A stretch of 64,000 nucleotides of DNA. Source: Cellulophaga lytica DSM 7489 (GTDB taxonomy: Bacteria > Bacteroidota > Bacteroidia > Flavobacteriales > Flavobacteriaceae). Where the stretch lies: assembly GCF_000190595.1 (NCBI RefSeq), contig NC_015167.1, positions 384,501 through 448,500 of the forward strand. Reading direction: 5' to 3'. The notes beneath the pieces are model-generated. The model did no database searches and was not told where the DNA came from. It worked only from the letters and a program-made list of their open reading frames with translations. This document shows positions 32,423-53,567 of this stretch, piece by piece; position 1 is the first letter of the stretch; each line of letters begins with the position of its first letter. The position numbers and the translations under genes are program-made.

Positions 32423-32430
32423 CAAAAATA

Positions 32431-32688: not shown

Positions 32689-32689
32689 C

Positions 32690-37927: not shown

Positions 37928-38944
37928 ATGATAGCAACACAATATAAAGGCAATAAAAATTTTGCTGTAATTGATAAAAAAATTGAAGAACCCAAAGATG
38001 ATGAGGTTCGTATAAAAGTAGCCTATTCTGGCGTTTGCGGTACAGATGTACACATTTATCATGGTATGATGGATAAAAGAGTTTCTATACCGCAAACAAT
38101 TGGCCATGAAATGTCTGGTGTTATTGATGTTGTAGGTAAAAATGTAACCAATTTTAAAGCAGGAGAAAAAGTTGTAGTAAGACCTTTAGATGACAGAAAA
38201 GTAAAACCTTCTGATAAAGGGTTTAATCATATCTGTGAGGACTTAAAATTTATTGGTATTGACAGTCCTGGTTCTATGCAACAGTACTGGAACGTACCTG
38301 CGTTTGTTTTACACAAGCTAAAACCAGAAACAGATTTAAAATTAGCTGCGCTAATTGAGCCATTGTCTGTGGCAACACATGATGTACGCAGAAGCGGACT
38401 AGTTAAAGGTGAAACTGCTGTTGTTTTAGGTGGCGGGCCAATTGGTATGTTGGTTGCTATGGTTGCTAAGGAAGTTGGCGCACAGGTTATAATTTCTGAA
38501 GTAAACCCTACAAGAATTAAAATGGCAAAAGACCTAGGTTTTGACGCTGTTAACCCAACTGAGGTTGATTTAGTAGCATACGTTAAAAGTAAAACAGAGG
38601 ACAAAAGAGCAGATGTTGTTTTTGAAGTAGCTGGCGTACAACCTGCTTTAGATATTATGTGTGAGGTTGCAGGTATTAGAGGCAGAATTTTAATGGTTGC
38701 TATTCATGGAGATAAAAAACCTGTAGATCTTTTTAAGTTTTTTTGGAAAGAATTGAGCTTAATTGGTGCTAGAGTTTATGAAAAAGAAGATTATGAAAAA
38801 TCTATAGAGCTTATTACAGAAAACAAACTTCCTTTTGAGGCTATGATTACAGATGTACAGCCTTTAAGCAAAATTCAGCAAGTGTTTGAAAACATTGATA
38901 AAAACCCTTCTGGAATGAAAGTATTGATGGATTGCAGTTTATAA
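37928..38944 (+). CDS. Medium-chain dehydrogenase, candidate 2-keto-3-deoxy-L-galactonate 5-dehydrogenase
   Basis: The 338-residue enzyme is a zinc-type alcohol dehydrogenase: GVCGTD (Cys37) and GHE (His60-Glu61) hold the catalytic zinc, and VLGGGPIGMLVAMVAKEVGA binds NAD. The four-cysteine structural zinc lobe is missing, replaced by PLDDRKVKPSDKGFNHICEDL with a single Cys. In the known L-AHG route such an enzyme oxidises carbon 5 of 2-keto-3-deoxy-L-galactonate, and the next gene (KduD-like SDR) reduces the product to KDG. Both genes are adjacent here, which is the basis for this call. First gene of the operon. Confidence 0.72.
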   Translation: MIATQYKGNKNFAVIDKKIEEPKDDEVRIKVAYSGVCGTDVHIYHGMMDKRVSIPQTIGHEMSGVIDVVGKNVTNFKAGEKVVVRPLDDRKVKPSDKGFNHICEDLKFIGIDSPGSMQQYWNVPAFVLHKLKPETDLKLAALIEPLSVATHDVRRSGLVKGETAVVLGGGPIGMLVAMVAKEVGAQVIISEVNPTRIKMAKDLGFDAVNPTEVDLVAYVKSKTEDKRADVVFEVAGVQPALDIMCEVAGIRGRILMVAIHGDKKPVDLFKFFWKELSLIGARVYEKEDYEKSIELITENKLPFEAMITDVQPLSKIQQVFENIDKNPSGMKVLMDCSL

Positions 38945-38967
38945 TTTTTAAAGAAACAATATAAAAA

Positions 38968-39738
38968 ATGAGTGTTTTAGATACATTTAAATTAAAAGGT
39001 AAAACAGCTTTAGTAACAGGCTGTAAAAGAGGTATAGGTAAAGCTATGGCTATTGGCTTAGCAGAAGCTGGTGCAAATATTATTGGGGTTTCTGCTAGTT
39101 TAGAATTAACCGGTAGTAGTGTGGCTAAAGAAGTAGAAGCAAAAGGCAAAAATTTTAGTGCTTATCAATGCGATTTCTCTGATAGAAAAGCTTTGTACAC
39201 ATTTATCAATCAGGTAAAAAAAGATCATCAACAAATAGATATTTTAATCAATAACGCTGGTACAATTTTAAGAGCTCCTGCTGTAGAACATCCAGATGAA
39301 ATGTGGGATAAGGTAATTGAAGTAAACCAAAATGCACAATTTATACTTACCAGAGAAATTGGTAAAGAAATGGTTGCTAGAGGTAACGGAAAAATTGTTT
39401 TTACAGCTTCATTATTAACATACCAAGGTGGCATTACTGTTCCTGGTTATGCTGCAAGCAAGGGTGCTATAGGCCAATTAACTATGGCCTTTGCAAATGA
39501 GTGGGCAGGCAAAGGGGTAAATGTAAACGCAATTGCTCCTGGTTACATTGCTACAGACAATACTGAAGCTTTACGTAATAATCCAGAGAGAGCAGAATCT
39601 ATTTTAGCAAGAATTCCTGCTGGAAGATGGGGAAAACCAGAAGATTTTGCTGGTCCTGTAGTTTTTTTAGCTTCTGAAGCTGCTAATTATATGAGTGGAG
39701 CTGTTATGCTAGTAGACGGCGGATGGATGGGAAGATAA
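38968..39738 (+). CDS. KduD-like short-chain dehydrogenase
   Basis: The 256-residue SDR has NAD-binding TGCKRGIG, NNAG at 95-98, and the catalytic Ser148, Tyr161, Lys165 set. It resembles 2-deoxy-D-gluconate 3-dehydrogenase/KduD and gluconate 5-dehydrogenase, and ends in the KduD-like GAVMLVDGGWMGR. KduD also catalyses reduction of 3-deoxy-2,5-hexodiulosonate to 2-keto-3-deoxy-D-gluconate. With the preceding dehydrogenase it would invert carbon 5 of the L-galactonate-derived keto acid to give KDG. Gap of 23 bases to the first gene and 15 to the sulfatase. Confidence 0.82.
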   Translation: MSVLDTFKLKGKTALVTGCKRGIGKAMAIGLAEAGANIIGVSASLELTGSSVAKEVEAKGKNFSAYQCDFSDRKALYTFINQVKKDHQQIDILINNAGTILRAPAVEHPDEMWDKVIEVNQNAQFILTREIGKEMVARGNGKIVFTASLLTYQGGITVPGYAASKGAIGQLTMAFANEWAGKGVNVNAIAPGYIATDNTEALRNNPERAESILARIPAGRWGKPEDFAGPVVFLASEAANYMSGAVMLVDGGWMGR

Positions 39739-39753
39739 TTTAAAAAATATACA

Positions 39754-41154
39754 ATGCATCATCAAAATATAAAAATAACGGTTCTCTTATTTGTTCTTTT
39801 AGAGGTGAGTTTACTATTTGGACAACAAAAACCCAATATTGTTTTTATACTTTCTGATGATGCTGGTTATGCTGATTTTGGTTTTCAAGGTAGTACTGAG
39901 TTTAAAACTCCAGAGTTAGATAAACTTGCAAAAAAAAGTGTGAAATTTACACAAGCATATGTAAGTGCAGCTGTTTGTGGACCATCTAGAGCAGGAATGC
40001 TTACCGGGCAGTACCAGCAAAAATTTGGTTTTGAAGAAAATAATGTACCTGGTTATATGAGTAGTTCTGGCTTACTAGGTGATCAAATGGGATTGCCCAC
40101 AAACCAACTTACTATTGCAGACTATTTAAAAAAACAAGGATATACTACTGCCCTATTTGGAAAATGGCATATGGGTAACGCAGATCTTTTTCACCCAACA
40201 AAACGAGGCTTTGACGAATTTTATGGTTTTAGAGGTGGTTCACGTAGCTATTTACCATATGATAAAAACAATGTACTAACCAAAAATGAAGACAGATTAG
40301 AAAAAGGTTTTGGAAATTATTTAGAACACAAAGGCTATCTTACAGACAAATTAGCCAATGAGGCTATATCATTCATCAATAAAAATAAAAAAACTCCCTT
40401 TTTTATTTACCTGTCTTTTAACGCTGTACATACTCCAATGGAGGCTACAAAAGAAGACCTAAAGTATTTTTCTCATTTAACTGGTAAAAGAAAAACATTA
40501 GCTGCAATGACTTTAGCTATGGACAGAGCTATTGGAACTGTTTTAGATGAACTAAAAAAACAAGGATTAGATAAAAATACTTTAGTTGTATTTACCAATG
40601 ATAACGGCGGACCATCAGATGCAAACCAATCTAACAATAATCCGCTTAGCGGCACAAAAGCTAACCATTTAGAAGGTGGTATTAGAGTGCCTTTTTTAAT
40701 GTCATGGCCTGGTAAGCTTAAGAAAAATACAACTTACAACTACCCAATTAGCACCTTAGATCTTTTTCCAACATTTTTAAATGTAGCAAACGGAAACTCA
40801 TCAAAATTAAAACAACTAGACGGTGTAGACCTAATGCCTTATGTAAAAGGAGAAAATAAAGAGAGACCGCATAAGGTTCTTTTCTGGAAAAAAGAAAACA
40901 GAGCCGCTATTAGAAATATGGATTGGAAACTAATACGATTTCCTGATAGGCCTGCTGAACTATACAATATAAAAAAAGATATTTCTGAAGTACATAACCT
41001 TGCTTATCAATATCCTAAAAAAGTTAAAGAGCTATACAAGCAATTATTTGCTTGGGAACTAACATTAGAAAGACCACTTTGGCAATTAAGAAGAGAGTTT
41101 GAAGGTTATGCTGCAAAACGCATGGATGCTTACAAAAAAACAAACACAAAATAA
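39754..41154 (+). CDS. S1-family sulfatase, exported
   Basis: A signal peptide (residues 1-23, ending in FGQ) precedes a type I sulfatase of 466 residues. The formylglycine site is C-G-P-S-R at 75-79, followed by AGMLTGQY, and metal ligands lie in [13 protein letters not shown] (Asp35, Asp36) and FTNDNGG. A formylglycine-generating enzyme must activate Cys75. It would remove a sulfate ester from a galactan oligosaccharide in the periplasm. The gene lies inside the L-AHG operon, 15 bases after the SDR and 14 before the aldehyde dehydrogenase. Confidence 0.92.
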
Positions 41155-41168
41155 TAATACCATACACT

Positions 41169-42623
41169 ATGTCATCAACTAAAGAATACAAGTTATTTAT
41201 TAACGGAGAATGGGTAACATCTACATCTGGCGAAACTATAGCTATTGTAAACCCATCTACAGAAGAAGTAGTCGCAAATGTACAAAACGGCACTGCAGAA
41301 GAAGCTTTAGAGGCACTAAAAGCAGCAGAAAAAGCACAAAAAGAATGGAAAAAATTACCTGCACGTTCTAGAGCAGATATGTTATATAAATTGGCAGATG
41401 AAATTGATGCCAATACAGAGCATTTGGCCCAACTATTAACCAAAGAACAAGGAAAACTTTTAAAGGTTGCTCGTTTTGAGGTTGCTGTTACGGCTTCGTT
41501 TATTAGATACGCTTGTGAAGGTGCTCGCAGAATTGAAGGTGATATTATTCCTTCTGATAACCCTAACGAGCAAATATGGATTCAAAAAGTTCCGCGTGGG
41601 GTTGTTGTTGCAATTACAGCTTGGAATTTTCCTTTGGCTTTGGCTGGCCGTAAATTGGGTCCGGCTTTGGTTGCTGGTAACAGCATTGTAATTAAGCCTA
41701 CATCAGAAACACCGTTAGCAACTTTAGAGTTAGGAAATTTGGCTAACAACGTGGGTATTCCTGCTGGAGTACTAAATATTATAACTGGCCCTGGTAGAGC
41801 TATGGGTAATGCTTTGGTAGAAAGTCCTATTACTAAAATGGTAACAATGACGGGTTCTACACCTGTTGGTCAGCAAATAGCTAAAAATGCTGCAAATAAC
41901 CTTACTCACGTTCAGTTAGAGCTTGGTGGTAAAGCTCCATTTATAGTTTTTAAAGATGCTGATATTGATGCTGCCGTTGATGCAGCATTACATTCTAGAT
42001 TTGACAATTGCGGACAAGTTTGCACCTGTAATGAACGTATGTATTTGCATGAAGATATTTACGATATTTTTATGGAGAAATTTATAACAAAAACTAAGGC
42101 ATTAAAAGTTGGTAATCCTATGTTAGAGGATACAGATATGGGACCTAAAGTAAATGCTGCCGAGTTAAAACATATGGAGCATTTAGTTGCTGTTAGTGTA
42201 AAAGAAGGGGCTACAATTGCAACTGGAGGAAAAAAACCAGAAGGAGCAGAATTTGAAAAAGGATACTGGTTTGAGCCTACCGTTTTAACCAACGTAACAC
42301 AAGATATGACTATTGTTCATGAAGAGTCTTTTGGTCCTATTTTACCTGTTTTAAAGTTTAAAACTTTTGATGAGGTTATAGGTTATGCTAATGACTGTGA
42401 ATACGGACTTGCTGCTATGGTTTTTACCAATGATATGAACACCATTATGAAATGTAATGACGAACTAGAATATGGAGAAATTTATGTAAATCGTGGTCAC
42501 GGAGAGCAACACCAAGGTTTTCATAACGGTTACAAATTATCTGGTTCTGGTGGCGAAGATGGTAAATATGGTTTTGAACAGTATATGGAAAAGAAGACGT
42601 TTTACATTAAACATAAAGCTTAA
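41169..42623 (+). CDS. Aldehyde dehydrogenase, candidate 3,6-anhydro-L-galactose dehydrogenase
   Basis: The 484-residue enzyme is a class of aldehyde dehydrogenase with catalytic Cys285 (GQVC) and general base Glu251 (LELGGK), and NAD binding region TAWNFPLALAGRKLGPALVAGN. Its C-terminus (GEIYVNRGHGEQ...GYKLSGSGGEDG) resembles E. coli lactaldehyde dehydrogenase AldA, which belongs to the same group. Because the next gene is an anhydrogalactonate cycloisomerase-like enzyme, the best substrate is 3,6-anhydro-L-galactose, oxidised to 3,6-anhydro-L-galactonate. Lactaldehyde oxidation is the alternative. Cytoplasmic. Confidence 0.78.
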   Translation: MSSTKEYKLFINGEWVTSTSGETIAIVNPSTEEVVANVQNGTAEEALEALKAAEKAQKEWKKLPARSRADMLYKLADEIDANTEHLAQLLTKEQGKLLKVARFEVAVTASFIRYACEGARRIEGDIIPSDNPNEQIWIQKVPRGVVVAITAWNFPLALAGRKLGPALVAGNSIVIKPTSETPLATLELGNLANNVGIPAGVLNIITGPGRAMGNALVESPITKMVTMTGSTPVGQQIAKNAANNLTHVQLELGGKAPFIVFKDADIDAAVDAALHSRFDNCGQVCTCNERMYLHEDIYDIFMEKFITKTKALKVGNPMLEDTDMGPKVNAAELKHMEHLVAVSVKEGATIATGGKKPEGAEFEKGYWFEPTVLTNVTQDMTIVHEESFGPILPVLKFKTFDEVIGYANDCEYGLAAMVFTNDMNTIMKCNDELEYGEIYVNRGHGEQHQGFHNGYKLSGSGGEDGKYGFEQYMEKKTFYIKHKA

Positions 42624-42645
42624 TAGCAACTTTTAAAGATTAAAA

Positions 42646-43737
42646 ATGAGTACAAAAATTAAAAGTGTAGAAACTAAGCTTTTTAAGGTTCCGTTACCAG
42701 AGGTTTTAAATGATGCCAAACACGGAGACCACACACATTTTGAGCTAGTAACCACTACCATTACTTTAGAAGATGGCAGTACAGGAACAGGCTACACCTA
42801 TACTGGCGGTAAAGGTGGGCACGCTATTAAAGCAATGGTAGAAAACGATTTTGCATCTGTTTTAATAGGTAAAGATGGTACAGACATAGATGGCTTGTAT
42901 GATTTTATGGAGTGGCATATTCACTACGTAGGTCGTGGTGGTATTGCATCATTTGCAATTTCTACTATAGATATTGCTCTTTGGGACATTAAATGCAAAA
43001 AAGCCAACCTTCCTTTATGGAAAATGGCCGGCGGAACAGACAACACTTGTAAAGCATATTGTGGTGGTATAGACTTACAGTTTCCTATAGAAAAACTTTT
43101 AAATAATATGAAAACCTATTTAGCTAACGGATTTAATGCTGTTAAAATAAAAATAGGAAGAGAAAATTTAGAAGAAGATTTAGAGCGTATAAAGGCAGTA
43201 AGAGAATTTGTTGGTCCGGATGTAACTTTTATGGTAGATGCCAACTACTCTATGACTGTTGAAAAAGCCATAAAAGCAATTGAAGGTTTTAAACAATACA
43301 ATATTACTTGGTTTGAAGAACCAATTATACCCGATAATTACAAAGGGTTTGCAGAAATAGTTGATAAAACAGGATTTCCTTTAGCTATGGGAGAAAACTT
43401 GCATACGATACACGAGTTTGAGTATGCTTTTAACCAAGCAAAGCTTTCTTTTATTCAACCAGATGCATCAAACTGTGGAGGAATTACAGGCTGGTTAAAA
43501 GCTGCACGTTTAGCAGACAAACACGGAGTTCCTGCTTGTTCCCATGGTATGCAAGAACTGCACGTGAGCTTAGTATCTGCACAACCAAACGCTGGGTGGC
43601 TAGAAGTACATAGTTTTCCTATAGATGAATATACTACAAGACCATTAGTAGTAGAAAATTATAGAGCTGTTGCTCCTAATACCCCTGGTACGGGAGTTGT
43701 ATTTAACTGGGAAAAACTAGCGCCTTATCAACAATAA
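42646..43737 (+). CDS. Enolase-superfamily enzyme, candidate 3,6-anhydro-L-galactonate cycloisomerase
   Basis: The 363-residue protein is a mandelate racemase-like member of the enolase superfamily. Acid/base Lys167 and Lys169 (KxK), metal ligands Asp198, Glu224 (WFEEP) and Glu250 (GEN), and His300 (CSHG) are in order. Cycloisomerisation of anhydrogalactonate opens the ring to give 2-keto-3-deoxy-L-galactonate. Its place after the aldehyde dehydrogenase, in an operon with GH117 nearby, makes this the most likely reaction. Other acid-sugar dehydratases of the family are the alternatives. Length is typical. Confidence 0.78.
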
Positions 43738-43748
43738 AAAATAATAGT

Positions 43749-44792
43749 ATGAAACCAATAAAAAGCAATTTTGGATCTCTAAATGAGCAAGAAATAGATT
43801 TGTATACATTAAAAAATGCAAACGGAATGGTTGTTAAAATAACCAATTACGGAGCAACAATTACGTCTATACAAGTGCCTAATGCTAAAGAAGAATTAGT
43901 AGAAATTGCTTGTGGATTTGATACTTTAGATGGTTATTTTTCTGATGAATACAAAAATAATGCTCCTTATTTTGGAAGTACCGTAGGTAGGTACTGCTCA
44001 CAAATTAAAGATGCTACGTTTATTTTAAACGGTAAAAAATATGAATTAGCAAAAAACTGTGGGCCCAATAATTTACATGGAGGTGCTGTTGGCTTTGATA
44101 AAAAAATATGGACAGTAGATACTACTTCTGCTAGTGAAAATAAATTAAAGTTATCTTTAGTAAGTAAAAATTTAGAAGAGGGCTTTCCTGGCAATGTTAA
44201 TGTATCTGTAACATTTACACTAACAAATAGTAATGAGTTAACCATTAGCTACAGTGCTACAACAGATGCAGACACACCATTATCATTAACAAACCATACG
44301 TATTTTAACTTATCTGGCTTTACCACATCTATAGAGAACCATACTGCACAAGTATATACTAATAAACGTTTAAAAATAGATGAAACTGGTGCCGCAACAG
44401 GAGAAATAATAGATGTATCTAATGCTGTGGATGATTTAACAAAGCCTAAGAAAATTGCAGACGCACACAATGCAATGAATGACGGTTTTGAACATTTTTA
44501 CGTTTTTGATACTACTGAAGATGAGGTAACAAAAGTAGCTACCATAGCTAATGAAAACGGACAATTAAGTGTTGATGTTTTTACTACAGAACCTTGCATG
44601 TTACTGTACACAGGTAAATACACCGCAGATAATCTTAAACGAGAAAACGGACTTAAATACGGAAAATACAAAGGATTTTGTTGTGAAACACACAGGTATC
44701 CTAACGGACCAAATATTAAAAACTCTCCAAAATCTATTACAAAAGCTGGTGAAAATTATAAGAGCACAACCGTCTTTAAATTTTCATTTTAA
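43749..44792 (+). CDS. galM: Galactose mutarotase (aldose 1-epimerase)
   Basis: The 347-residue enzyme has the galactose mutarotase fold. Motifs are ITNYGATITSIQVP, YFGSTVGRYCSQI, NNLHGGAVGFDKKIW, TNHTYFNLSG (catalytic His region) and the C-terminal CCETHRYPNGPN. It interconverts alpha and beta anomers of hexoses, supplying free galactose in the right form to downstream kinases after GH2 hydrolysis. No signal peptide, so cytoplasmic. It lies between the cycloisomerase gene (11 bases) and the permease gene (33 bases). Confidence 0.92.
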   Translation: MKPIKSNFGSLNEQEIDLYTLKNANGMVVKITNYGATITSIQVPNAKEELVEIACGFDTLDGYFSDEYKNNAPYFGSTVGRYCSQIKDATFILNGKKYELAKNCGPNNLHGGAVGFDKKIWTVDTTSASENKLKLSLVSKNLEEGFPGNVNVSVTFTLTNSNELTISYSATTDADTPLSLTNHTYFNLSGFTTSIENHTAQVYTNKRLKIDETGAATGEIIDVSNAVDDLTKPKKIADAHNAMNDGFEHFYVFDTTEDEVTKVATIANENGQLSVDVFTTEPCMLLYTGKYTADNLKRENGLKYGKYKGFCCETHRYPNGPNIKNSPKSITKAGENYKSTTVFKFSF

Positions 44793-44825
44793 CATAACTA
44801 ATTCACTCAAAAAAACAACCAAACT

Positions 44826-45839
44826 ATGACAGAAGGAGTATTACTAGCAATTTTTGCAGGATTAATGTTGGGCTTGTATGCCCTACCAGAAAAATTTACA
44901 AAAGATTTTAAGTACGAAAACACGTGGAGCTTATTCTTTTTACTTACCATGTTTGTGGTTCCTATAATAGCATCTGTATCACTAATAAAAGGATTTGGTG
45001 ATATTTTTGGAAATATGCCAACAGACATATGGATTAAAATGGGACTTACCAGCTTTTTATGGGGAGTTGGTGTAATGATGTGGAGTAAAGCAATTAACCA
45101 CATTGGCTTGTCCTTAGGCTTTTCTTTGTTTATTGGAACCATAATTTTGGTAGGTTCTGTATTGCCTTTTATTGAAGACGGCTTACCACCTACTAACAAA
45201 CTAACCATTATTTTAATTGGCTTATTAGTTGTTTTAGTTGGCATTTTTGCTAACGGAAAAGCTGGTTTTATTAGAGAAAAAGTAGAGAAAAGCACAGAAG
45301 AAAATACCGCTAAAAAAGGATCTATGGCCACAGGTATTTTAATAGCAGTAGTCGGTGGTTTACTTGCTACAGGTTTTAGTTATGCTAATGCAGCAGGAAG
45401 ACCTTATTTACACGAGGCTAGCCAAGCTGCAGGAAATGCAGAGTGGATAACTGCTGTTGCTGTTATGTTCCCAATTTTTATTAGTGGGGGTATTGTAATG
45501 ACGGCCTATTTTTTATGGCAATTAAATAGTAAAAAAGCTTGGGGGGATTTTAAAACTCCAGCTTTTGGCAAAAACTTTGTATTAATACTAGTAATGGCAT
45601 TTTTTCATTATGCTGCTTCTGCCCTATTCGCCTTTGCTGCCTACAAATTAGGAGCTTCTGGCAACACTGTTGGTTATGCCATTTTTAACACCTCATGTGT
45701 TGCCACTGCAATTGTAAGTGGTATTATTACCAAAGAATGGATTAACGCCTCTAAAAAAGCACGAAACTTTTTATACCTAGGTCTTAGCTGTATGGTAATT
45801 GGTATTGTAATAGTTGCATATAGCAACAGTATATCTTAA
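44826..45839 (+). CDS. RhaT-like sugar permease
   Basis: The 337-residue membrane protein has about ten helices and resembles the L-rhamnose-proton symporter RhaT group of the drug/metabolite transporter superfamily. It has EGVLLAIFAGLMLGLYALPEKFTKDFKYENTW at the N-terminus and GVMMWSKAINHIGLSLGFSLFIG. It would import a deoxy or anhydro sugar; L-AHG or galactose is likely because it ends the L-AHG operon. The actual substrate is unproven. A bidirectional terminator lies after it, and the next gene is convergent. Confidence 0.82.
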   Translation: MTEGVLLAIFAGLMLGLYALPEKFTKDFKYENTWSLFFLLTMFVVPIIASVSLIKGFGDIFGNMPTDIWIKMGLTSFLWGVGVMMWSKAINHIGLSLGFSLFIGTIILVGSVLPFIEDGLPPTNKLTIILIGLLVVLVGIFANGKAGFIREKVEKSTEENTAKKGSMATGILIAVVGGLLATGFSYANAAGRPYLHEASQAAGNAEWITAVAVMFPIFISGGIVMTAYFLWQLNSKKAWGDFKTPAFGKNFVLILVMAFFHYAASALFAFAAYKLGASGNTVGYAIFNTSCVATAIVSGIITKEWINASKKARNFLYLGLSCMVIGIVIVAYSNSIS

Positions 45840-45871
45840 AAAAAATTAGAGTTAGTTTTTAGTTTTTGCAA

Positions 45872-45899
45872 AAAAGACCCGCAATTATGCGGGTCTTTT
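45872..45899. terminator. Bidirectional terminator
   Basis: AAAAGACCCGCA pairs perfectly with TGCGGGTCTTTT around ATTA, between the convergent L-AHG and L-galactose operons. Confidence 0.9.
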
Positions 45900-45975
45900 A
45901 CTCTTTACTAAAAAAAATTAAACTGTTAGTAAAACAGCTTAAACACTAACAAAAAGAACTAAAAAAAACTAATTT

Positions 45976-46317
45976 TTACAATTGAAATATCTTCTCTAAA
46001 GCAATCCACTTTTCTCCTTTTTTTGCCCAAGGCAACTCTTGCTGGTACTTCCACATTAAGTTTTCCCACTCTTGTACTTTAGGATTATTAGCATCCATTT
46101 CTGCCTTTTTTTTGGCATTAAAAGTAGCATCTACCTCCATAATCATAAACATTCTATTGCCTGTAAGGTATATTTGCATATCTACAATACCTGCATCTTT
46201 TATACTCTTAGTAATCTCTGGCCAAGCTTTGCCCTTTGCGTGGTACGCCTTATATTCTTCAATAAGCTTAGAATCGTTTTTTAGGTCGCAAGAGTAACAA
46301 TATCTTTTGGTTTGCAT
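45976..46317 (-). CDS. L-rhamnose/L-fucose mutarotase-like protein (RhaM family)
   Basis: The 113-residue protein matches the RhaM/DUF718 family (QTKRYCYSCDLKNDSKLIEEYKAYHAKGKAWPE, IYLTGNRMFMIMEVDATF and WEN-LMWKYQQ). Family enzymes mutarotate L-rhamnose or L-fucose pyranoses. In this operon, next to a fucose-type permease and dehydrogenase, its substrate is probably L-galactose, which differs from L-fucose only by a hydroxyl at carbon 6. It is the last gene of the minus-strand operon, 1 base after the permease gene. Confidence 0.85.
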   Translation of the reverse strand: MQTKRYCYSCDLKNDSKLIEEYKAYHAKGKAWPEITKSIKDAGIVDMQIYLTGNRMFMIMEVDATFNAKKKAEMDANNPKVQEWENLMWKYQQELPWAKKGEKWIALEKIFQL

Positions 46318-46318
46318 T

Positions 46319-47659
46319 TTATATTTTTTTTGAGGATTTATAGGTTACATAGCCGTAAGCAGTAACCACTGATAAACATATAAGTGGTAGTATAAATGAA
46401 AAGTTAATTTCTGGAATAAATCCTAATATTTTTACATCTGAAAAACCAGGACCGCCCCAGTCTAAAATTCCACCTTGTAAAACCGGCATTAAAGCACCGC
46501 CAACAATGGCCATTACCAAGCCAGCAGATCCTATTTTAGCCTCGTCTCCCATATCTTTAAGTGCTATGCCATAAATGGTAGGAAACATAATAGACATAAA
46601 TAAAGATATACCCACTAAAGAGTACAAGCCTAATTGCCCTTGTAATAAAATTGCTCCTGCAGAAAATAGTACTCCGCCTAAACCAAATAATAACAGTACA
46701 CGAGATGGGTTTAAGGTTTTCATTAAAGCTGTACCAATCCACCTGCCTGTTAAAAAAATAACCATAGCTGCTACATTATACCAAGTAGCCGTTAAGGCTT
46801 CATTTGCTGGCAAACCTTCATTTATATTATCTACGTATTGAAAAATATAGGTCCAACACATAATTTGTGCTCCCACATAAAATGCTTGAGCTATTACACC
46901 AAAAATGTAATTTTTATTTGAGAACAGTTTTTTAAAAGAATCTGAGATAGACATTTTATCACCATCTACAGATTTAGGAATTTTAATGAATAAAATAATT
47001 GCCATAATACATAAAACTACTACTCCAAGTATAATATATGGCACGCTAATTACACTTAAGTCATTTTCTCTAATTACCGCCTTTGCAGATGAGGATAACC
47101 CGTCATAAATTAATTCCCCTGCTTCATTTTTATCATCAGAACGTAGTGCAGAAATAACAAACTGTTGAGCAACTATCATTCCTATTAAAGAACCAATAGG
47201 ATTAAATGCTTGTGCTAAGTTTAAACGTTGCGTTGCTGTTTCTTTTGCTCCTAATGATAAAATTAGTGGGTTAGATGTAGTCTCTAAAAAAGCTAAACCA
47301 CATGTTATAACCCATAGCGATATTAAAAAGTAATTAAACTCCTGAAAAGCTGCTGCCGGATAAAATAAAAAAGCACCTATAGCATACAAGCATAACCCTA
47401 ATACAATACCAGATTTATAACTGTATTTTCTTATAAATAAAGCTGCAGGTAATGCCATAAAAAAATAACCAAAGTAAAAAGCAAACTGCACTAACGATGC
47501 CTGCATATTAGACAATTCTGGCATTACTTTTTTAAATGCAGAAACCATAGGGTTGGTTAAGTCATTTGCAATTCCCCATAAAGCAAATAAAGAGGTTATC
47601 ATTATAAAAGGAAATAACAATTCCTTTTTTACTATAGGTTTATTGTTGGTTGAGTTCAT
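46319..47659 (-). CDS. fucP: FucP-like L-fucose:proton symporter
   Basis: The 446-residue permease has 12 predicted helices and belongs to the FucP branch of the major facilitator superfamily. Landmarks are LFPFIMITSLFALWGIANDLTNPMVSAFKKVMPE, ASLVQFAFYFGYFFMALPAALFIRKYSYK and AQAFNPIGSLIGMIVAQQFVIS. FucP carries L-fucose and accepts L-galactose, D-arabinose and related sugars. Given the pathway that follows, L-galactose uptake is the main inference. Upstream, 94 bases separate it from the SDR gene, where an internal promoter could lie. Confidence 0.88.
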   Translation of the reverse strand: MNSTNNKPIVKKELLFPFIMITSLFALWGIANDLTNPMVSAFKKVMPELSNMQASLVQFAFYFGYFFMALPAALFIRKYSYKSGIVLGLCLYAIGAFLFYPAAAFQEFNYFLISLWVITCGLAFLETTSNPLILSLGAKETATQRLNLAQAFNPIGSLIGMIVAQQFVISALRSDDKNEAGELIYDGLSSSAKAVIRENDLSVISVPYIILGVVVLCIMAIILFIKIPKSVDGDKMSISDSFKKLFSNKNYIFGVIAQAFYVGAQIMCWTYIFQYVDNINEGLPANEALTATWYNVAAMVIFLTGRWIGTALMKTLNPSRVLLLFGLGGVLFSAGAILLQGQLGLYSLVGISLFMSIMFPTIYGIALKDMGDEAKIGSAGLVMAIVGGALMPVLQGGILDWGGPGFSDVKILGFIPEINFSFILPLICLSVVTAYGYVTYKSSKKI

Positions 47660-47753
47660 AATACAGGTTAATTACTTTAGTATAAAATTAAAAATGACAG
47701 CTGTTAAAAAGGGCTACTTCTGGCTTAAATAGCAGAACAAATGATTTTATGTG

Positions 47754-48545
47754 CTATTCTGTTAACAAAGACCTATCTAAATGAACATAACCACCATCTA
47801 CAGTAATAAACTGTCCTGTTGTGTGTGATGATTTTGAAGATATTGTAAACAAACATTGGTCTGCTATTTCAGCAGGCATTGTCATCCTATTTTCTAATGG
47901 TATCTTTTTTACAATAGATTGAAGCTTGTCTTCTCCGTTTTCTAAGGTTTTAATCCAAGCCTCATAAGCAGGTGTCCAACTTTCTGCAATAACAATGGCA
48001 TTAGAGCGTATGCCGTACTTAATTAAATCTACTGCCCACTCACGTGTTAAGCCAAACACACCTCCTTTAGATGCAGCATAACCAGATGTGCCTCCTTGGC
48101 CTGTAAGTGCTACTTTAGACCCTATATTTAAAATATTACCCTTGGCTTTTTTTAGCATTGGCAAACAGTATTTTGCCATTGCAAAATAACTTACCATATT
48201 AAGCTTAAGAGAATACATAAAATCTTCTATAGGAGCATTTAAACCTGCACCATCATTAACACCAACATTATTTATTAAGGCATCAATTTTACCGTATTTT
48301 TTTTCTATTATTTTAGCTGCTGCTTCAATTTGTATGTGGTCTGATAAATCTGTTTTTACAAACAAAGCATCTATACCCTTTTCTTTAAGTTCTTTTTCAT
48401 ATCCAAAACCTCTATCATTTCTACAAACTATAACTGGTATTGCGCCCTCTGCCGCTAAATGCTGCACTATTGTTTCTCCTATACTACCTTTTATACCTGC
48501 AGCGCCTGTTACTACAACTACTTTATCTTTTAATCCTAAATCCAT
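47754..48545 (-). CDS. L-fucose/L-galactose dehydrogenase (SDR)
   Basis: The 263-residue SDR has VVTGAAGIKGSIGE as the cofactor loop, NNVG at 92-95, and the catalytic Ser143, Tyr156 and Lys160. The C-terminal VDGGYVHLDRSL is typical of flavobacterial L-fucose dehydrogenases. It would oxidise the anomeric carbon of L-fucose or L-galactose to a 1,5-lactone, which the neighbouring amidohydrolase opens. The pathway context (tagaturonate reductase, altronate dehydratase) favours L-galactose. Spacing of 10 bases to the lactonase gene. Confidence 0.85.
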   Translation of the reverse strand: MDLGLKDKVVVVTGAAGIKGSIGETIVQHLAAEGAIPVIVCRNDRGFGYEKELKEKGIDALFVKTDLSDHIQIEAAAKIIEKKYGKIDALINNVGVNDGAGLNAPIEDFMYSLKLNMVSYFAMAKYCLPMLKKAKGNILNIGSKVALTGQGGTSGYAASKGGVFGLTREWAVDLIKYGIRSNAIVIAESWTPAYEAWIKTLENGEDKLQSIVKKIPLENRMTMPAEIADQCLFTISSKSSHTTGQFITVDGGYVHLDRSLLTE

Positions 48546-48555
48546 TTTATATCTT

Positions 48556-49383
48556 TTATAAATTATAAAATTTTACAGCATTTAACCCAAGTATCTTTTC
48601 TTGATCTTCTGCACTCAATTGGGAAATAAAATCTGTAACTAACTCTTTTACTCTTTTATAGTTACCTGCTACTAAACACACAGGCCAATCTGACCCAAAT
48701 AATAACCTATCTGCTCCAAATGCTTTTAAAACCAACTGCATATAAGGCTTTATAGTTTCTGATGTCCACGTTTTATAATCTGCTTCTGTTACCATACCAG
48801 ATAGTTTGCAGTACACGTTTTGTTGGGCGCCAATTGCCAACATTAAGTTTGCCCAACCATCATAAAAACCATCTTTTATATATGGTTTAGCAATATGGTC
48901 TATAACAAAGTTTATTTTAGGGAACTTTTTCACAAACTCTAACACTGCTCCCAATTGATGGGGAAACACTAAAATATCATACGTAAAATTGTATTGTTCT
49001 AATTGAGCAATTCCGTTTAAAAAATTGGATCTTAATAAAAAATTATGGTCTGGCTCTCCTTGTACTACGTGCCTAAACCCTTTTATTATTTTTATTTTAC
49101 TGTAATGATCTAAAACCTCATTTATGTTATCTGCTCTAAAATCTACCCAACCAACAATACCTTTTATAAAGTTATTTTTAGATGCCAAGTCTATTAAAAA
49201 GTCATTTTCTAGTGTAGTTTGGTCTGCCTGTACAGCTACACAACCATCTATATTATTTTCTAAATAAACTTTCTTTAGTTTAGCTGGCATAAAATCTTTT
49301 CTAATTACAGCCATAGTATCATCTATCCAACTATGTTTTGTTGGTTCATACTTCCAAAAGTGTTGATGAGCATCTATTATCAT
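48556..49383 (-). CDS. Amidohydrolase-family sugar-acid lactonase
   Basis: The 275-residue protein has the amidohydrolase start IDAHQHFWKY (metal-binding His5 and His7), FVIDHIAKPY and FGSDWPVC. It resembles L-fuconolactonases, such as the amidohydrolases that open L-fucono-1,5-lactone. Here the likely substrate is L-galactono-1,5-lactone, giving L-galactonate. It lies 1 base before the uxaB gene and 10 bases after the SDR gene, in one operon. Family assignment is firm; substrate is inferred. Confidence 0.85.
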   Translation of the reverse strand: MIIDAHQHFWKYEPTKHSWIDDTMAVIRKDFMPAKLKKVYLENNIDGCVAVQADQTTLENDFLIDLASKNNFIKGIVGWVDFRADNINEVLDHYSKIKIIKGFRHVVQGEPDHNFLLRSNFLNGIAQLEQYNFTYDILVFPHQLGAVLEFVKKFPKINFVIDHIAKPYIKDGFYDGWANLMLAIGAQQNVYCKLSGMVTEADYKTWTSETIKPYMQLVLKAFGADRLLFGSDWPVCLVAGNYKRVKELVTDFISQLSAEDQEKILGLNAVKFYNL

Positions 49384-49384
49384 A

Positions 49385-50863
49385 TTAGTTTTCTATTTTT
49401 CTTAAACATTCTTCTACTCCATATTCATCAATAGCCGTAATGCTTTTAGCAATAAAATCTACCAGTCCTTTATACTTTGTTAAATCTTCTCCTACTATGG
49501 TTTTATTAGCTAAGGTGTGTGCAACCAAATCTGTTACAGATTGTGATTTATTATCTACCATTTTCCATTGGTTTTCAAAAAATTTTAAAACCAACTTATC
49601 ATCAGTAACAGCAATAACTTCTCCATTAAAACTACCTTTATAAAAACGAATTAAACTAGCTAATGAAAAAGCAATACGTTTAGGAAAAGAACCGTGTAAC
49701 TGGTTATAATCTTTAAATGCTGGCAATAATCTAGATTGAAATTTTGAGGTACTATTTAATGATATTGCAATTAAAAAATGTTGAAGTGTAGGGTTCTTAA
49801 ACCTGTCTACCACAGCATCTATAAAAGCATCTATTTCATTTGAAGAAAACTTGGTTAACGTAGGTTTAATTTCTGTAGCTAAAATTTGAAAAATATGATT
49901 GCTAACCACTTCATTATCCATACTTTCCTTTACCGTTCTTAAGCCGGCTAAATAACCAACCGGAACTAAAGAAGTATGTGCACCATTTAAAATACGTACT
50001 TTCATTTCTCGGTAATCGTGTAAATTATCTACAAACTGTACGTTTAAATCTGTTTTAGAAAAAGGCAATTCTTTTTGTACCAATGCATTTGCCTTAATTA
50101 CCCAGCTATGGTACTCTTCACCAGCAACTAAAAGTTTATCTTTAAAACCTGTTTTTTCCTCTAAAAATGGAGCTCTGTCTGTAGGATAACCAGATACTAT
50201 ACGGTCTACCAGTGTGCTACAAAAATGGTTGCAATTTAAAATCCAGTCTATAAACTCTTGTTTTATTTGCCAATGTTTTGCATACTGTATAACTGTTTCT
50301 TTTAAAGCCTCACCATTATCTTCTATTAACTCACAAGGCAATAAAATACAGCCTTTATCCTTGTCTCCATTAAAATAACTATACCTGTGATACAGCCACA
50401 ATGTTAGTTTTGCAGGAAATTCTTTAGGAGGACAATCTGTAATTTTATCATTTTCAGAAAACTGAATTCCGGCTTCTGTTGTATTAGAAACTATAAATCG
50501 TAATTCTGGTAACTCTGCCAATGCCAAATACTTATCCCATTCTGTATAAGGCTGAATAATGGTACTTATAGATTCTACTAAAGTAACTTCTGATACTGTT
50601 TTCCCATTTTTAATACCATCTAAGGCTACAGTAAACAAACCGTTTTGCTCTCTAAGAGCAGTATAATCTCCTGTTTCTGTTGGTTTAACTACAGCTACAC
50701 TACCATTAAACGCTGTTGTTTTGTTTAGTACATCAAACATCCAATCACAAAAGGCACGCAAAAAGTTACCTCCGCCAAATTGCATAACACGTATGGGATG
50801 TATAACTGGTTTTTGAGCTGTATGCCTATCCAATAATTGTATTGATTTTTCTTTTGTTGCCAT
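49385..50863 (-). CDS. uxaB: Tagaturonate reductase
   Basis: The start is ATG at 50863, giving 492 residues; the frame continues upstream into the 3' end of uxaA but without a plausible start. The enzyme belongs to the mannitol dehydrogenase family (N-terminal IRVMQFGGGNFLRAFCDWMFDVLN, central LNGAHTSLVPVGYLAGLRTV). UxaB reduces D-tagaturonate to D-altronate with NADH. Between the lactonase and uxaA it provides the step from tagaturonate, the keto acid made from L-galactonate, to altronate. Confidence 0.9.
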   Translation of the reverse strand: MATKEKSIQLLDRHTAQKPVIHPIRVMQFGGGNFLRAFCDWMFDVLNKTTAFNGSVAVVKPTETGDYTALREQNGLFTVALDGIKNGKTVSEVTLVESISTIIQPYTEWDKYLALAELPELRFIVSNTTEAGIQFSENDKITDCPPKEFPAKLTLWLYHRYSYFNGDKDKGCILLPCELIEDNGEALKETVIQYAKHWQIKQEFIDWILNCNHFCSTLVDRIVSGYPTDRAPFLEEKTGFKDKLLVAGEEYHSWVIKANALVQKELPFSKTDLNVQFVDNLHDYREMKVRILNGAHTSLVPVGYLAGLRTVKESMDNEVVSNHIFQILATEIKPTLTKFSSNEIDAFIDAVVDRFKNPTLQHFLIAISLNSTSKFQSRLLPAFKDYNQLHGSFPKRIAFSLASLIRFYKGSFNGEVIAVTDDKLVLKFFENQWKMVDNKSQSVTDLVAHTLANKTIVGEDLTKYKGLVDFIAKSITAIDEYGVEECLRKIEN

Positions 50864-50897
50864 TTTTACAATGCGTTGTTTACTACGTAAATAGTAT

Positions 50898-52550
50898 TTA
50901 TAAAGAAACTCCTCTCTTCCACGGAATAAAGTCGTTATTGCCATGTATTACTGCTTTTGATGCTAGTTCTCCACTAGCAACTTTTATAATATGTTCTAAT
51001 ATTTTTTCACCCATAGTTTCTATGGTATCCTCGCCACTAATTACAGTACCTGCATTTATATCTATAATATCTTGCATACGTTGGTATAAGTTGGTATTAC
51101 TAGACATTTTTAAAACAGGTGCAACTGGGTTTCCGGTGGGTGTTCCTAAGCCAGTTGTAAATACTACTACATTACAACCAGAACCAACCAAGCCTGTAGT
51201 TGACTCTACATCATTACCTGGTGTGCACAATAAATTTAAACCCGGTTTTGTAACCTGCTCTGTATAATCTAACACGCTAACAACAGGAGATGTACCTCCT
51301 TTTTTGGCTGCTCCTGCAGATTTCATTGCGTCTGTTATTAAACCATCTTTAATATTTCCGGGAGACGGATTGTTTTCAAAACCAGAACCAACAGCAACTG
51401 CTGCTGCTGAGTACGCTCTCATTAAATTGTAAAACTTTTTAGAATCCTCTTCTGTTACACACCTATTAATTATTTCTTGCTCTACGCCGTTTAACTCTGG
51501 AAACTCTGCTAAAACAGGACTACCGCCTAAAGCCACTAATAAATCTGACGCATAACCTAAAGCTGGGTTTGCAGATATTCCTGAAAACCCATCAGAGCCA
51601 CCACACTCTAACCCTAAAACAAGTTTATGTAATGGTGCTGGTTTACGGGTAATTTTATTAGCTTCTATTAAACCTAAAAATGTATGCTTAACAGCTTCTT
51701 CTATAAAGTTACGCTCACTTAAACTACGCTGTTGCTCTAAATAATATACTGGTTTGGTAGTGCTGGGGTCTATAGCCAAAATAGCTTCTTGCATCATAGA
51801 AATTTGTGCATTTTGACACCCTAAACTTAAAATTGTAGCACCTGCAACATTTGGGTTGCATATATAACCTGCTAATAATTTACATAAGGTTTCAGAGTCT
51901 TGACGTATACCGCCACAACCACCATCATGCTTTAAAAATTTAATTCCGTCTACATTAGGAAATACCCTATTTTTAGCCATTTCCTCGTGACTGGTAATAA
52001 TTGGAGTATTTAAAATATCATCTTTATGGGCTCTTGCTTTATACTGCTTAATTAAAGCATCTGTATCTACAGCAAAATCTTTTTTTGTTTGGTAGCCTAG
52101 TTTCTCTGCAAGTGCAGCTTCTATAACATCAATATTTCTGTTCTCACAAAAAGTTAGTGGTATTACCAACCAGTAATTGGCAGTACCTACTTTACCATCT
52201 TTTCTATGATATCCATTAAATGTTTTGTCTTTAAACTTAGATATGTTTGGCGTACTCCAAACAAACTCCTTTTTTTGATTGGTAAAGTCTGATGATGCGT
52301 GTTTTATATTTTCTGTTGTAATTGCACTACCTGCTTTAATTGTTGTGGTTGCTTTACCTATTAAAACCCCATACATAAAAATTTTATCTGCAGGGTTAAA
52401 GTCGTGTAAAGCAAACTTATGTTTTTGCTTTATGTCTTGTTGTAAAACTATTTGTTTGCCTGCAATAGTTACTACTGTACCTTTACTTAATGCTGTAATG
52501 GCAACTATAATATTATCTTTAGCATCTATTTGTATGTAGTTTTTAGACAT
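50898..52550 (-). CDS. uxaA: Altronate dehydratase
   Basis: The 550-residue protein joins an N-terminal SAF-like domain (about 1-90) and the large dehydratase domain of UxaA/GarD. Motifs include GYHRKDGKVGTANYWLVIPLTFCENRN, SLGCQNAQ, GLECGGSDGFSGISANPALG and CTPGNDVESTTGLVGSGCNVVVFTTGLGTPTGNPVAPVLK. It dehydrates D-altronate to KDG. Such proteins also serve as fuconate dehydratases in fucose routes, so L-fuconate is an alternative substrate. The gap to uxaB is 34 bases. Confidence 0.9.
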   Translation of the reverse strand: MSKNYIQIDAKDNIIVAITALSKGTVVTIAGKQIVLQQDIKQKHKFALHDFNPADKIFMYGVLIGKATTTIKAGSAITTENIKHASSDFTNQKKEFVWSTPNISKFKDKTFNGYHRKDGKVGTANYWLVIPLTFCENRNIDVIEAALAEKLGYQTKKDFAVDTDALIKQYKARAHKDDILNTPIITSHEEMAKNRVFPNVDGIKFLKHDGGCGGIRQDSETLCKLLAGYICNPNVAGATILSLGCQNAQISMMQEAILAIDPSTTKPVYYLEQQRSLSERNFIEEAVKHTFLGLIEANKITRKPAPLHKLVLGLECGGSDGFSGISANPALGYASDLLVALGGSPVLAEFPELNGVEQEIINRCVTEEDSKKFYNLMRAYSAAAVAVGSGFENNPSPGNIKDGLITDAMKSAGAAKKGGTSPVVSVLDYTEQVTKPGLNLLCTPGNDVESTTGLVGSGCNVVVFTTGLGTPTGNPVAPVLKMSSNTNLYQRMQDIIDINAGTVISGEDTIETMGEKILEHIIKVASGELASKAVIHGNNDFIPWKRGVSL

Positions 52551-52559
52551 TACTATTTT

Positions 52560-53567
52560 TTAAAAATTTACAGTTGCTTTTATTACTCCTGTTTCTGGTT
52601 TAAGCCAACTATCAAAATTTGAAATCATCTCTGTAAAAGGTACAGAGTGTGTAATAAATGAATCTGTAGGAAACTCATTTAACACATTAATTACGTGCTC
52701 AAAATCTTCAGTTGTTGCGTTTCTGCTACACATTAAGGTCATTTCCTTTGCGTGTATAGCTGGGTGTGTATAGGTTAACTCTCCTTTAGACAGGCCTACT
52801 AGTATAAATCTTCCGCCGTGAGACATGTAAGACGGGCAAGTTTCTAGTGCTCCTTTATGTCCAGATGCATCAAAAACAGCTGTACATAAATCGCCATTTG
52901 TAATTTCTGTAATTTTAGCTACAGGGTTATCTGCAACGTTTACGGTATAGTCTACTCCTATTTTATCTTTAGCATATTGTAGTCTTTGCTCGTTTAAATC
53001 CAGTGCTATTACTTTAGCACCTGCAATTTGTGCTAATTTCATAATTCCTATGCCAATAGGACCGCAACCAACAACAGCTATAGTTTCTCCTTTTACAATA
53101 TTTGCTCTTCTGATAGCGTGGGCTCCTATTGCCAAAGGTTCTACAATTGCCATTTGGTCATCAGATAAATTATTAGCTGGTATTAATATAGAAGCCGGCA
53201 CAGTAATTTGTTCTTGCATACCACCATCTGTATGCACACCTAAAACTTTTATATTAGTACAACAATTTGTTTTTCCGTTTCTACAAGCTATACAAGTTCC
53301 ACAGCTTATATAAGGCATAACAACTACTTTATCTCCTGCTTTTATTCCTTTATCATTTGCGCCAATTTCTAAAACTTCTGATGCCAATTCATGACCTAAA
53401 ATTCTAGGATAGGTAAAAAAAGCTTGGTTACCACCATAAGCGTGCAAATCTGTACCACAAATACCTACTTTATTAATTTTTAGTAGGGCTTCATCTTCTT
53501 TTCTAACTGGTGCATCTTTCTCTTTTAAAAGAAATTCTCCTGGTTTTTCACAAACTATATACTTCAT
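52560..53567 (-). CDS. Zinc alcohol dehydrogenase, candidate L-galactonate 5-dehydrogenase
   Basis: The 335-residue enzyme is a complete zinc-type medium-chain dehydrogenase: catalytic Cys37 (GICGTD) and His59-Glu60 (GHE), and a structural zinc set Cys89, Cys92, Cys95 and Cys103. It contains GCGPIGIGIMKLAQIAG for NAD binding. It resembles L-galactonate and sorbitol-type oxidoreductases (LgoD-like). With uxaB and uxaA next to it, oxidation of L-galactonate to D-tagaturonate is the best prediction. It is the first gene of the minus-strand operon, 9 bases before uxaA. Confidence 0.78.
   Translation of the reverse strand: MKYIVCEKPGEFLLKEKDAPVRKEDEALLKINKVGICGTDLHAYGGNQAFFTYPRILGHELASEVLEIGANDKGIKAGDKVVVMPYISCGTCIACRNGKTNCCTNIKVLGVHTDGGMQEQITVPASILIPANNLSDDQMAIVEPLAIGAHAIRRANIVKGETIAVVGCGPIGIGIMKLAQIAGAKVIALDLNEQRLQYAKDKIGVDYTVNVADNPVAKITEITNGDLCTAVFDASGHKGALETCPSYMSHGGRFILVGLSKGELTYTHPAIHAKEMTLMCSRNATTEDFEHVINVLNEFPTDSFITHSVPFTEMISNFDSWLKPETGVIKATVNF

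What the first reader, a model, noticed from the sequence alone, without database searches (positions are those of the whole stretch)
37928..53567. Two monomer-degrading routes that converge on KDG in one locus
Operon 37.9-45.8 kb contains the set expected for 3,6-anhydro-L-galactose: aldehyde dehydrogenase, enolase-superfamily cycloisomerase, medium-chain dehydrogenase and KduD-like SDR. The facing operon 53.6-46.0 kb contains the set expected for L-galactose: SDR, lactonase, zinc dehydrogenase, UxaB, UxaA. Both would end at 2-keto-3-deoxy-D-gluconate. These are the two L-sugar building blocks of agar and porphyran. Seen: gene order and motifs. Known: the L-AHG route to KDG and UxaA/UxaB chemistry. 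Inferred: the substrates and the convergence.
Basis: partly seen in the sequence, partly recalled or inferred. Interest (0 to 1): 0.75.

Follow-up and report, generated by a model that had tools for sequence, protein, structure and literature searches.

The report
Two red-seaweed L-sugar routes, one endpoint
A marine bacterium keeps, side by side, two gene sets that very probably break down the two left-handed sugars of agar and porphyran to the same small acid; one set is a well-known cluster, while the other looks like a little-noticed variant that may explain where porphyran's L-galactose goes.

Summary
Observation confirmed; interpretation largely supported. The genome has 3,765,936 bases, the length published for Cellulophaga lytica LIM-21T.

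The + operon (37928-45839), behind a GH117 and an IclR regulator, is the known L-AHG cluster: cycloisomerase, dehydrogenase and GH117 have strong solved matches; similar clusters are published in Zobellia and Aquimarina. A D-AHG-type set sits elsewhere.

The facing operon (53567-45976) is LgoD-UxaA-UxaB-lactonase-SDR-FucP-mutarotase. No UxaC, FucI or close L-fucose-tail hydrolase was found in the genome. Among 299 family genomes an LgoD+UxaB module occurs in 19 of 24 with the L-AHG cycloisomerase and 19 of 275 without (p 2e-15), within 40 kb of it in 7 of those 19. Of 30 fuller modules, 23 hold the SDR and 5 an aldo-keto reductase; 5 enclose a GH29.

Limits: tested SDR relatives prefer L-fucose; the SDR clade also occurs with L-fucose tails (8 of 46 loci); no activity was measured; the two operons look separately regulated; the candidate KDG kinase and aldolase are unlinked.

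The parts
33066..35597 (+). GH2 (GalA/GalB-like beta-galactosidase family, below the curated cut-offs)
   Evidence: Pfam/NCBIfam
35602..36828 (+). GH117, 1,3-alpha-(3,6-anhydro)-L-galactosidase
   Evidence: 789 bits to PDB 3p2n
36942..37733 (+). IclR-family regulator, nearest models BhcR and PcaR/KdgR, below their curated cut-offs
37879..37886 (+). TATATTTG, fits the Bacteroidota -7 box TAnnTTTG (consensus recalled); its last base is the first base of the palindrome
37886..37901 (+). Palindrome GTTTCAAATATGAAAC, candidate IclR operator; a second copy with one mismatch at 37904-37919
37928..38944 (+). MDR dehydrogenase, predicted 2-keto-3-deoxy-L-galactonate 5-dehydrogenase
   Evidence: function inferred from context
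38968..39738 (+). KduD-like SDR, predicted 2,5-diketo-3-deoxy acid reductase giving KDG
   Evidence: KduD model 320.7 bits against cut-off 338.85; PDB 4z9y
39754..41154 (+). Sulfatase
   Evidence: Pfam PF00884
41169..42623 (+). 3,6-anhydro-L-galactose dehydrogenase (ALDH family)
   Evidence: 744.6 bits to PDB 6j75, the best match; 6j75 is the L-AHG dehydrogenase reference in PMC10163077
42646..43737 (+). 3,6-anhydro-L-galactonate cycloisomerase
   Evidence: 640.4 bits to PDB 5xd7; next different protein 326.8; 5olc (DauB) 146.5
43749..44792 (+). GalM-type aldose 1-epimerase
44826..45839 (+). RhaT-family sugar/H+ symporter
45976..46317 (-). rhaM-family mutarotase, last gene of the - operon
   Evidence: Pfam PF05336, 107.6 bits
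46319..47659 (-). FucP-family symporter
   Evidence: TIGR00885 509.5 bits over cut-off 280.4
47754..48545 (-). SDR of the L-fucose dehydrogenase family, predicted L-galactose 1-dehydrogenase
   Evidence: NF052481 355 bits over cut-off 300; PDB 4gkb, 6drr
48556..49383 (-). Amidohydrolase, predicted L-galactono-lactonase
   Evidence: NF052480 260.3 bits, under cut-off 400; PDB 4dlf
49385..50863 (-). UxaB, tagaturonate reductase (start corrected from 50944)
   Evidence: NF002969 631 bits over cut-off 359; 44% to E. coli UxaB
50898..52550 (-). UxaA, altronate dehydratase family
   Evidence: Pfam; 32% to E. coli UxaA
52560..53567 (-). LgoD-like MDR, predicted L-galactonate 5-dehydrogenase giving D-tagaturonate
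   Evidence: 40% over 337 columns to E. coli LgoD; tree
53761..58104 (+). Hybrid two-component regulator (HTCS), divergent from LgoD
   Evidence: a role in the L-galactose operon is a guess

Best explanation
These are two catabolic operons for the two L-units of agar and porphyran. The + operon takes L-AHG, freed by GH117, through 3,6-anhydro-L-galactonate and 2-keto-3-deoxy-L-galactonate; the MDR oxidises C5 and the KduD-like SDR reduces it the other way to give KDG. The - operon takes L-galactose through L-galactono-lactone and L-galactonate; the LgoD-like MDR oxidises C5 to D-tagaturonate, UxaB reduces it to D-altronate, and UxaA dehydrates that to KDG. Both routes therefore invert C5 by an oxidation and a reduction. 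An unlinked kinase-aldolase pair at about 2.65 Mb would then cleave KDG. Shown: gene content, families, conservation, co-occurrence and linkage. Inferred: substrates, directions, the shared end point and separate regulation (IclR for the L-AHG operon, perhaps the HTCS for the other).
For: L-AHG: solved relatives; conserved cluster in 80 loci; Aquimarina order GH2-GH117-MDR-KduD-AHGD-ACI; Zobellia cluster with ahgA induced by agar and less by porphyran; a D-AHG-type set elsewhere in the genome. L-galactose: LgoD, UxaB and UxaA relatives in E. coli; no UxaC; control positive in 7 of 14 genomes; no FucI; control positive in 3 of 14; only a distant, partial match, 37%, to the L-fucose-tail hydrolase; a single SDR match at E up to 1e-60 in this genome; module in 19 of 24 cycloisomerase genomes, this genome included, and 19 of 275 others; 7 of 19 within 40 kb, six genera; genomes with the other SDR clade show no such association: 5 of 44, p 0.27; aldo-keto reductase in the SDR slot in six loci, all six with UxaB and none with an L-fucose tail; GH29 inside the operon; LG18: L-galactonate, D-tagaturonate, D-altronate, KDG; porphyranase-domain protein, GH16, GH29 and sulfatases downstream. 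KDG use.
Against: No activity was measured. Tested relatives of the SDR (B. multivorans 4gkb, C. [quoted passage not shown] Of 46 loci with this SDR clade, 25 have the LgoD+UxaB pair, 8 an L-fucose tail and 13 neither, and LgoD relatives occur beside L-fucose tails too, so neither gene is diagnostic alone. That the swapped aldo-keto reductases belong with the known L-galactose dehydrogenases was not tested: only the Pfam family was. The lactonase and the KduD-like SDR miss their curated cut-offs. The Bacteroidota MDR clade stands apart from the gammaproteobacterial MDRs at cycloisomerase loci, so its reaction is not carried over from a tested orthologue. 19 of 38 module genomes have no cycloisomerase match and 5 of 24 cycloisomerase genomes no module.
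Confidence: 0.82

Rival explanations
1. The - operon is mainly for L-fucose, or serves L-fucose and L-galactose alike.
For: FucP, L-fucose dehydrogenase and fuconolactonase families; tested family members prefer L-fucose; the same SDR clade stands with L-fucose tails in 8 of 46 loci; GH29 genes nearby.
Against: Of 91 loci scored (chosen because they held these SDRs or modules, mostly 12-20 kb long), 38 have LgoD+UxaB without an L-fucose tail, 22 a tail without UxaB, 1 both (on opposite strands) and 30 neither (tail = KDF-dehydrogenase or FAH-hydrolase match at 55% or more, my threshold). This genome has no close tail hydrolase and no FucI. G061 and G134 keep the two operon types apart. UxaB leads to phosphorylatable KDG only from a sugar with a C6 hydroxyl (chemistry, recalled).
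Confidence: 0.13
2. UxaA and UxaB serve D-galacturonate breakdown and merely sit here.
For: Their best-known role in E. coli, where uxaA lies beside uxaC.
Against: No UxaC match in this complete genome; sugar dehydrogenase, lactonase and LgoD stand in the operon instead. An unrecognised isomerase is not excluded.
Confidence: 0.03
3. The + operon is for D-AHG from carrageenan.
For: Same enzyme families; a RhaT-type symporter occurs in both sets.
Against: Cycloisomerase 640 bits to the L enzyme against 146 to 5olc, which is DauB; GH117 next door; a distinct D-AHG-type set at 2.02 Mb.
Confidence: 0.02

Closest known systems
L-AHG/agar cluster of Zobellia galactanivorans (ZGAL_4657-4669) and Aquimarina sp. 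ERC-38 PUL-a
   Same: GH117 with L-AHG catabolic genes; in Aquimarina the same order GH2-GH117-MDR-KduD-dehydrogenase-cycloisomerase, with KDG kinase and aldolase elsewhere (passages).
   Different: Here an L-galactose operon faces it, and the IclR gene and candidate operator stand before the MDR.
L-galactose route of Phocaeicola (Bacteroides) vulgatus (BVU_0219, BVU_0222) and lgu cluster of Luteolibacter LG18
   Same: L-galactose to L-galactonate to D-tagaturonate; in LG18 on through D-altronate to KDG (passages).
   Different: Those first enzymes group with plant L-galactose dehydrogenase (aldo-keto reductases by recall); here an SDR of the L-fucose dehydrogenase family takes the slot.
E. 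coli L-galactonate pathway (LgoD, UxaB, UxaA)
   Same: Same three families.
   Different: E. coli has a galactonate symporter beside lgoD (lgoT); here sugar dehydrogenase, lactonase and sugar symporter genes are added.
Carrageenan D-AHG system (DauA-DauD)
   Same: ALDH plus enolase-superfamily cycloisomerase.
   Different: Other enantiomer, own kinase and aldolase. In the set at 2.02 Mb no MDR or KduD-like SDR was seen among the 7 of 15 listed ORFs scanned.

Membership tests
L-AHG catabolic cluster | 3,6-anhydro-L-galactonate cycloisomerase | tested here: met
   sequence only
L-AHG catabolic cluster | L-AHG dehydrogenase | tested here: met
   sequence only
L-AHG catabolic cluster | 5-dehydrogenase and KduD-like reductase pair | tested here: inconclusive
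   Both genes present and conserved; KduD model missed by 18 bits; reactions untested
L-AHG catabolic cluster | GH117 adjacent | tested here: met
L-galactose to KDG pathway | L-galactonate 5-dehydrogenase (LgoD) | tested here: inconclusive
   40% to E. coli LgoD; relatives also in other operons
L-galactose to KDG pathway | Tagaturonate reductase and altronate dehydratase | tested here: met
   UxaB over cut-off, UxaA by Pfam; sequence only
L-galactose to KDG pathway | L-galactose 1-dehydrogenase activity | not testable with these tools
   SDR family only; no match to the relatives' aldo-keto reductase in this genome (no positive control in that call)
Non-phosphorylating L-fucose pathway | KDF dehydrogenase and FAH-type hydrolase in the operon | tested here: not met
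   Neither among the genes of the - operon; genome has only a 37% partial match to the hydrolase
D-galacturonate isomerase pathway | UxaC | tested here: not met
KdgR (IclR family) | Curated KdgR model NF011671 | tested here: not met
   127.6 bits against cut-off 275

The most novel reading that the evidence does not exclude
Many agarolytic Flavobacteriaceae carry a dedicated, so far little-noticed L-galactose operon with an interchangeable first enzyme (SDR or aldo-keto reductase) and sometimes a built-in GH29, kept together with the L-AHG operon so that both L-units of agar and porphyran end in KDG by the same C5-inversion logic.
Probability: 0.65. Interest if true: 0.55.

Novelty: new variant of a known kind. 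Interest (0 to 1): 0.45.

Why it matters
Porphyran breakdown in a gut Bacteroides is described down to L-galactose release by sulfatase and GH29 (passages); the passages seen here do not say what marine flavobacteria then do with L-galactose. A conserved operon makes that directly testable and adds to the reasons why KDG is a hub for seaweed sugars.

Tried and rejected
SDR lid loop as a galactose/fucose switch: the UxaB-linked SDRs first looked distinct (AES[WY]TP[AS]Y against TPLY in fucose enzymes), but the same loop occurs in operons with L-fucose tails, L157 and L159 of that clade have TPMY, and in the other clade L174 has TPAY and L178 TPMY. It marks a clade, not a substrate. Rejected.

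Cellulophaga-only linkage: with flanks of at most 10 kb only 3 of 80 loci, all Cellulophaga, showed both operons; the genome searches showed linkage within 40 kb in six genera. The first view was an artefact of flank length.

Shared regulator: the candidate IclR operator pattern has one place in the genome and was not found upstream of LgoD or in the kinase-aldolase stretch. The LacI-like palindrome near the kinase had no match in the window within 3 mismatches. No common control found. Against the operator itself: the backwards control pattern also has one match per strand in the genome, and with 2 mismatches the window holds 4 matches where 4.46 are expected; its support is conservation alone.

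LgoD alone as marker: 23 of 24 cycloisomerase genomes have it, 37 of 275 others, but it also lies beside L-fucose tails, so the LgoD+UxaB pair was used.

A first co-occurrence count used only part of the UxaB rows; one search used all 90 listed. The binomial rests on a rough 2.1% chance value. The Fisher and binomial tests ignore kinship and contig breaks, and the window's own genome is counted in the 24 and the 19. The other SDR clade is called fucose-type because 15 of its 24 fetched loci hold an L-fucose tail; 9 do not within the stretch taken.

Papers: only search listings and passages (one search found no passage); none was read whole. That the operon is not in print for marine flavobacteria rests on searches of an open-licence library only.
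Full report
Where it is. The window lies at 384501-448500 of a single 3,765,936-base contig, the length reported for Cellulophaga lytica LIM-21T, an agar degrader (passages).

The + operon. Seven genes run 37928-45839 with gaps of 11-33 bases: MDR, KduD-like SDR, sulfatase, ALDH, enolase-superfamily cycloisomerase, GalM and a RhaT-type symporter. The cycloisomerase scores 640 bits against the solved L-enzyme 5xd7, 327 against the next different protein and 146 against 5olc, which is DauB, the D-enzyme of carrageenan breakdown. The ALDH scores 745 bits against 6j75, its best match, the reference for L-AHG dehydrogenase in the Aquimarina paper. Just upstream is a GH117 with 789 bits to 3p2n. Aquimarina ERC-38 has the same order of GH2, GH117, MDR, KduD-like SDR, dehydrogenase and cycloisomerase, with KDG kinase and aldolase elsewhere. 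In Zobellia galactanivorans a cluster with the GH117 gene ahgA and L-AHG genes responds to agar and less to porphyran. Of 80 cycloisomerase loci found in named genomes (the best 80 of 111), 69 carry the dehydrogenase, 66 the MDR, 62 the KduD-like SDR, 62 the GH117, 60 GalM and 60 the symporter at 45% identity or more. This half is already known.

An internal contrast. At 2.02 Mb (L099) the same genome has a second set: aldolase, ALDH, dehydratase-like enolase member, RhaT- and GntP-type transporters. A 319-residue ORF stands where a kinase is expected, but no NCBIfam model matched it. The order recalls the carrageenan D-AHG cluster of Zobellia. 7 of the 15 listed ORFs there were scanned.

The - operon. 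From 53567 down to 45976: LgoD-like MDR, UxaA, UxaB, amidohydrolase lactonase, SDR, FucP and a rhaM-type mutarotase. Against E. coli K-12 the MDR is 40% identical to LgoD (the + operon MDR 31%), UxaB 44% and UxaA 32%. No UxaC and no FucI were found in the genome, the SDR is the only match of its kind at E up to 1e-60, and the best match to an L-fucose-tail hydrolase is partial and 37% identical. The route from L-galactonate through D-tagaturonate and D-altronate to KDG is established in Luteolibacter LG18 and follows E. coli (passages).

Comparative tests. Four searches covered the same 299 genomes drawn evenly from the family, this one included. The L-AHG cycloisomerase (E up to 1e-120) is in 24. 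An LgoD-UxaB module (within 5.5 kb) is in 38; 19 of the 24 cycloisomerase genomes have it, 19 of the other 275 (Fisher p 2e-15; kinship ignored). In 7 of those 19 the module lies 5.7-34 kb from the cycloisomerase, in six genera; three more lie on the same contig at 66, 73 and 135 kb, and in the other nine the two are on different contigs. Five cycloisomerase genomes lack the module. As a contrast, genomes with the other SDR clade (58% identity or less) have the cycloisomerase in 5 of 44 (p 0.27).

Operon make-up. Among 91 fetched loci scored (L010 and L102-L191, chosen because they held these genes), 38 have LgoD and UxaB without an L-fucose tail, 22 have a tail without UxaB, 1 has both on opposite strands and 30 have neither. 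Of the 38, 30 also have UxaA and the lactonase: 23 with the SDR, 5 with an aldo-keto reductase in its slot and 2 with neither at my thresholds; 26 have a FucP-type symporter and 21 the mutarotase (some loci are cut short). L116, where no UxaA match was seen, is the sixth locus with the aldo-keto reductase; all six have UxaB and none a tail. Five of the 30, and L111 outside them, hold a GH29 inside the operon. In porphyran breakdown by B. plebeius a GH29 is the alpha-L-galactosidase (passages). That the aldo-keto reductases are kin of the known L-galactose dehydrogenases is recalled, not tested; no match to one of them was found in the C. lytica genome (no positive control).

Evidence against. 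Tested relatives of the SDR prefer L-fucose and D-arabinose. Of 46 loci with this SDR clade, 8 hold an L-fucose tail (L126, L127, L133, L136-L138, L156, L158) and 13 hold neither tail nor UxaB pair; LgoD relatives stand in those eight too. So neither gene proves the substrate. The loop idea failed. The - operon could in part handle both sugars.

Chemistry. Both routes invert C5: MDR oxidation, then reduction by the KduD-like SDR or by UxaB. In the Agarivorans cycloisomerase locus L086 the neighbours are an LgoD-like MDR, a fructuronate-reductase-like protein, an Ldh_2 protein, a PfkB kinase and a KDPG aldolase. A 29-row tree sets a 16-row clade with the + operon MDR (99/100 support; Bacteroidota and two Kiritimatiellota) apart from the three gammaproteobacterial MDRs, whose place near E. 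coli LgoD is unresolved. So the MDR of the + operon is not an orthologue of these, and its reaction needs its own test.

Regulation. A palindrome GTTTCAAATATGAAAC starts 42 bases before the MDR start, overlaps a TATATTTG box by one base and is followed by a one-mismatch copy. Strict matches to GTTTC-N6-GAAAC occur upstream of the MDR in 12 of 66 loci, against 14 of 4,000 random windows from the 80 loci. Counting two relaxed matches, the element is present in 14 of 21 loci with the IclR gene and 0 of 45 without (p 1.5e-9, kinship ignored; IclR presence read; relaxed matches at other distances in L017 and L058 were not counted). Of the IclR loci without it there, L030, L047 and L085 hold a strict match elsewhere, as does L033, which has no MDR match; L031, L052, L054 and L057 hold none. 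In the own genome the pattern has one place, but so has the backwards control, and with 2 mismatches the window shows no excess; the case rests on conservation. A local repressor is the simplest reading. The - operon starts beside a divergent hybrid two-component regulator at 53761-58104; that it controls the operon is a guess.

Surroundings. Beyond the window's right end (20 of the 30 ORFs listed in L006 and L007 were scanned) lie a GH2, a protein with two porphyranase domains (GH86-type by recall), GH16, GH28, two GH29, GH43-family proteins, six sulfatases and a SusD, which fits porphyran or a related galactan.

KDG use. A PfkB kinase and a KDPG aldolase over its cut-off are adjacent at about 2.651 Mb (L101), beside a divergent LacI-type regulator. 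They are the best candidates for the shared last steps; the kinase met no curated NCBIfam cut-off, and other PfkB proteins and a second aldolase exist in the genome.

Verdict. The L-AHG half is known; the L-galactose half is a well-supported but untested variant of a known pathway, and its association with agar use is the new part.

Noticed in passing
37886-37919: Tandem palindromic element before the L-AHG operon, conserved with the IclR gene in several genera; a candidate operator.
   Followed up: yes
L099:11572-18304 (genome about 2.02 Mb): A D-AHG-type carrageenan set resembling dauA-dauD of Zobellia in the same genome.
   Followed up: partly
L101:10622-10775: Two copies of a GCTTAATCGATTAACC palindrome between a LacI-type regulator and the kinase-aldolase pair.
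   Followed up: partly
L006:5295-7172 and L007:1839-6115: Porphyranase-domain protein and two GH29 genes downstream of the window, suggesting a larger porphyran locus.
   Followed up: partly
L086:4545-9990: Agarivorans cycloisomerase locus with an LgoD-like MDR and a fructuronate-reductase-like protein in place of the MDR-KduD pair.
   Followed up: partly
L104, L107, L108 and others: UxaB in the same operon slot falls into groups roughly 51-72% and 43-48% identical to the window's; possible replacement.
   Followed up: no
L149, L150, L152 and others: Operons with LgoD, lactonase, SDR and FucP but neither UxaB nor an L-fucose tail in the stretch taken.
   Followed up: no
32350-32689: Two tRNA-Lys (ttt) genes just upstream of the GH2; possible boundary of the locus.
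   Followed up: no
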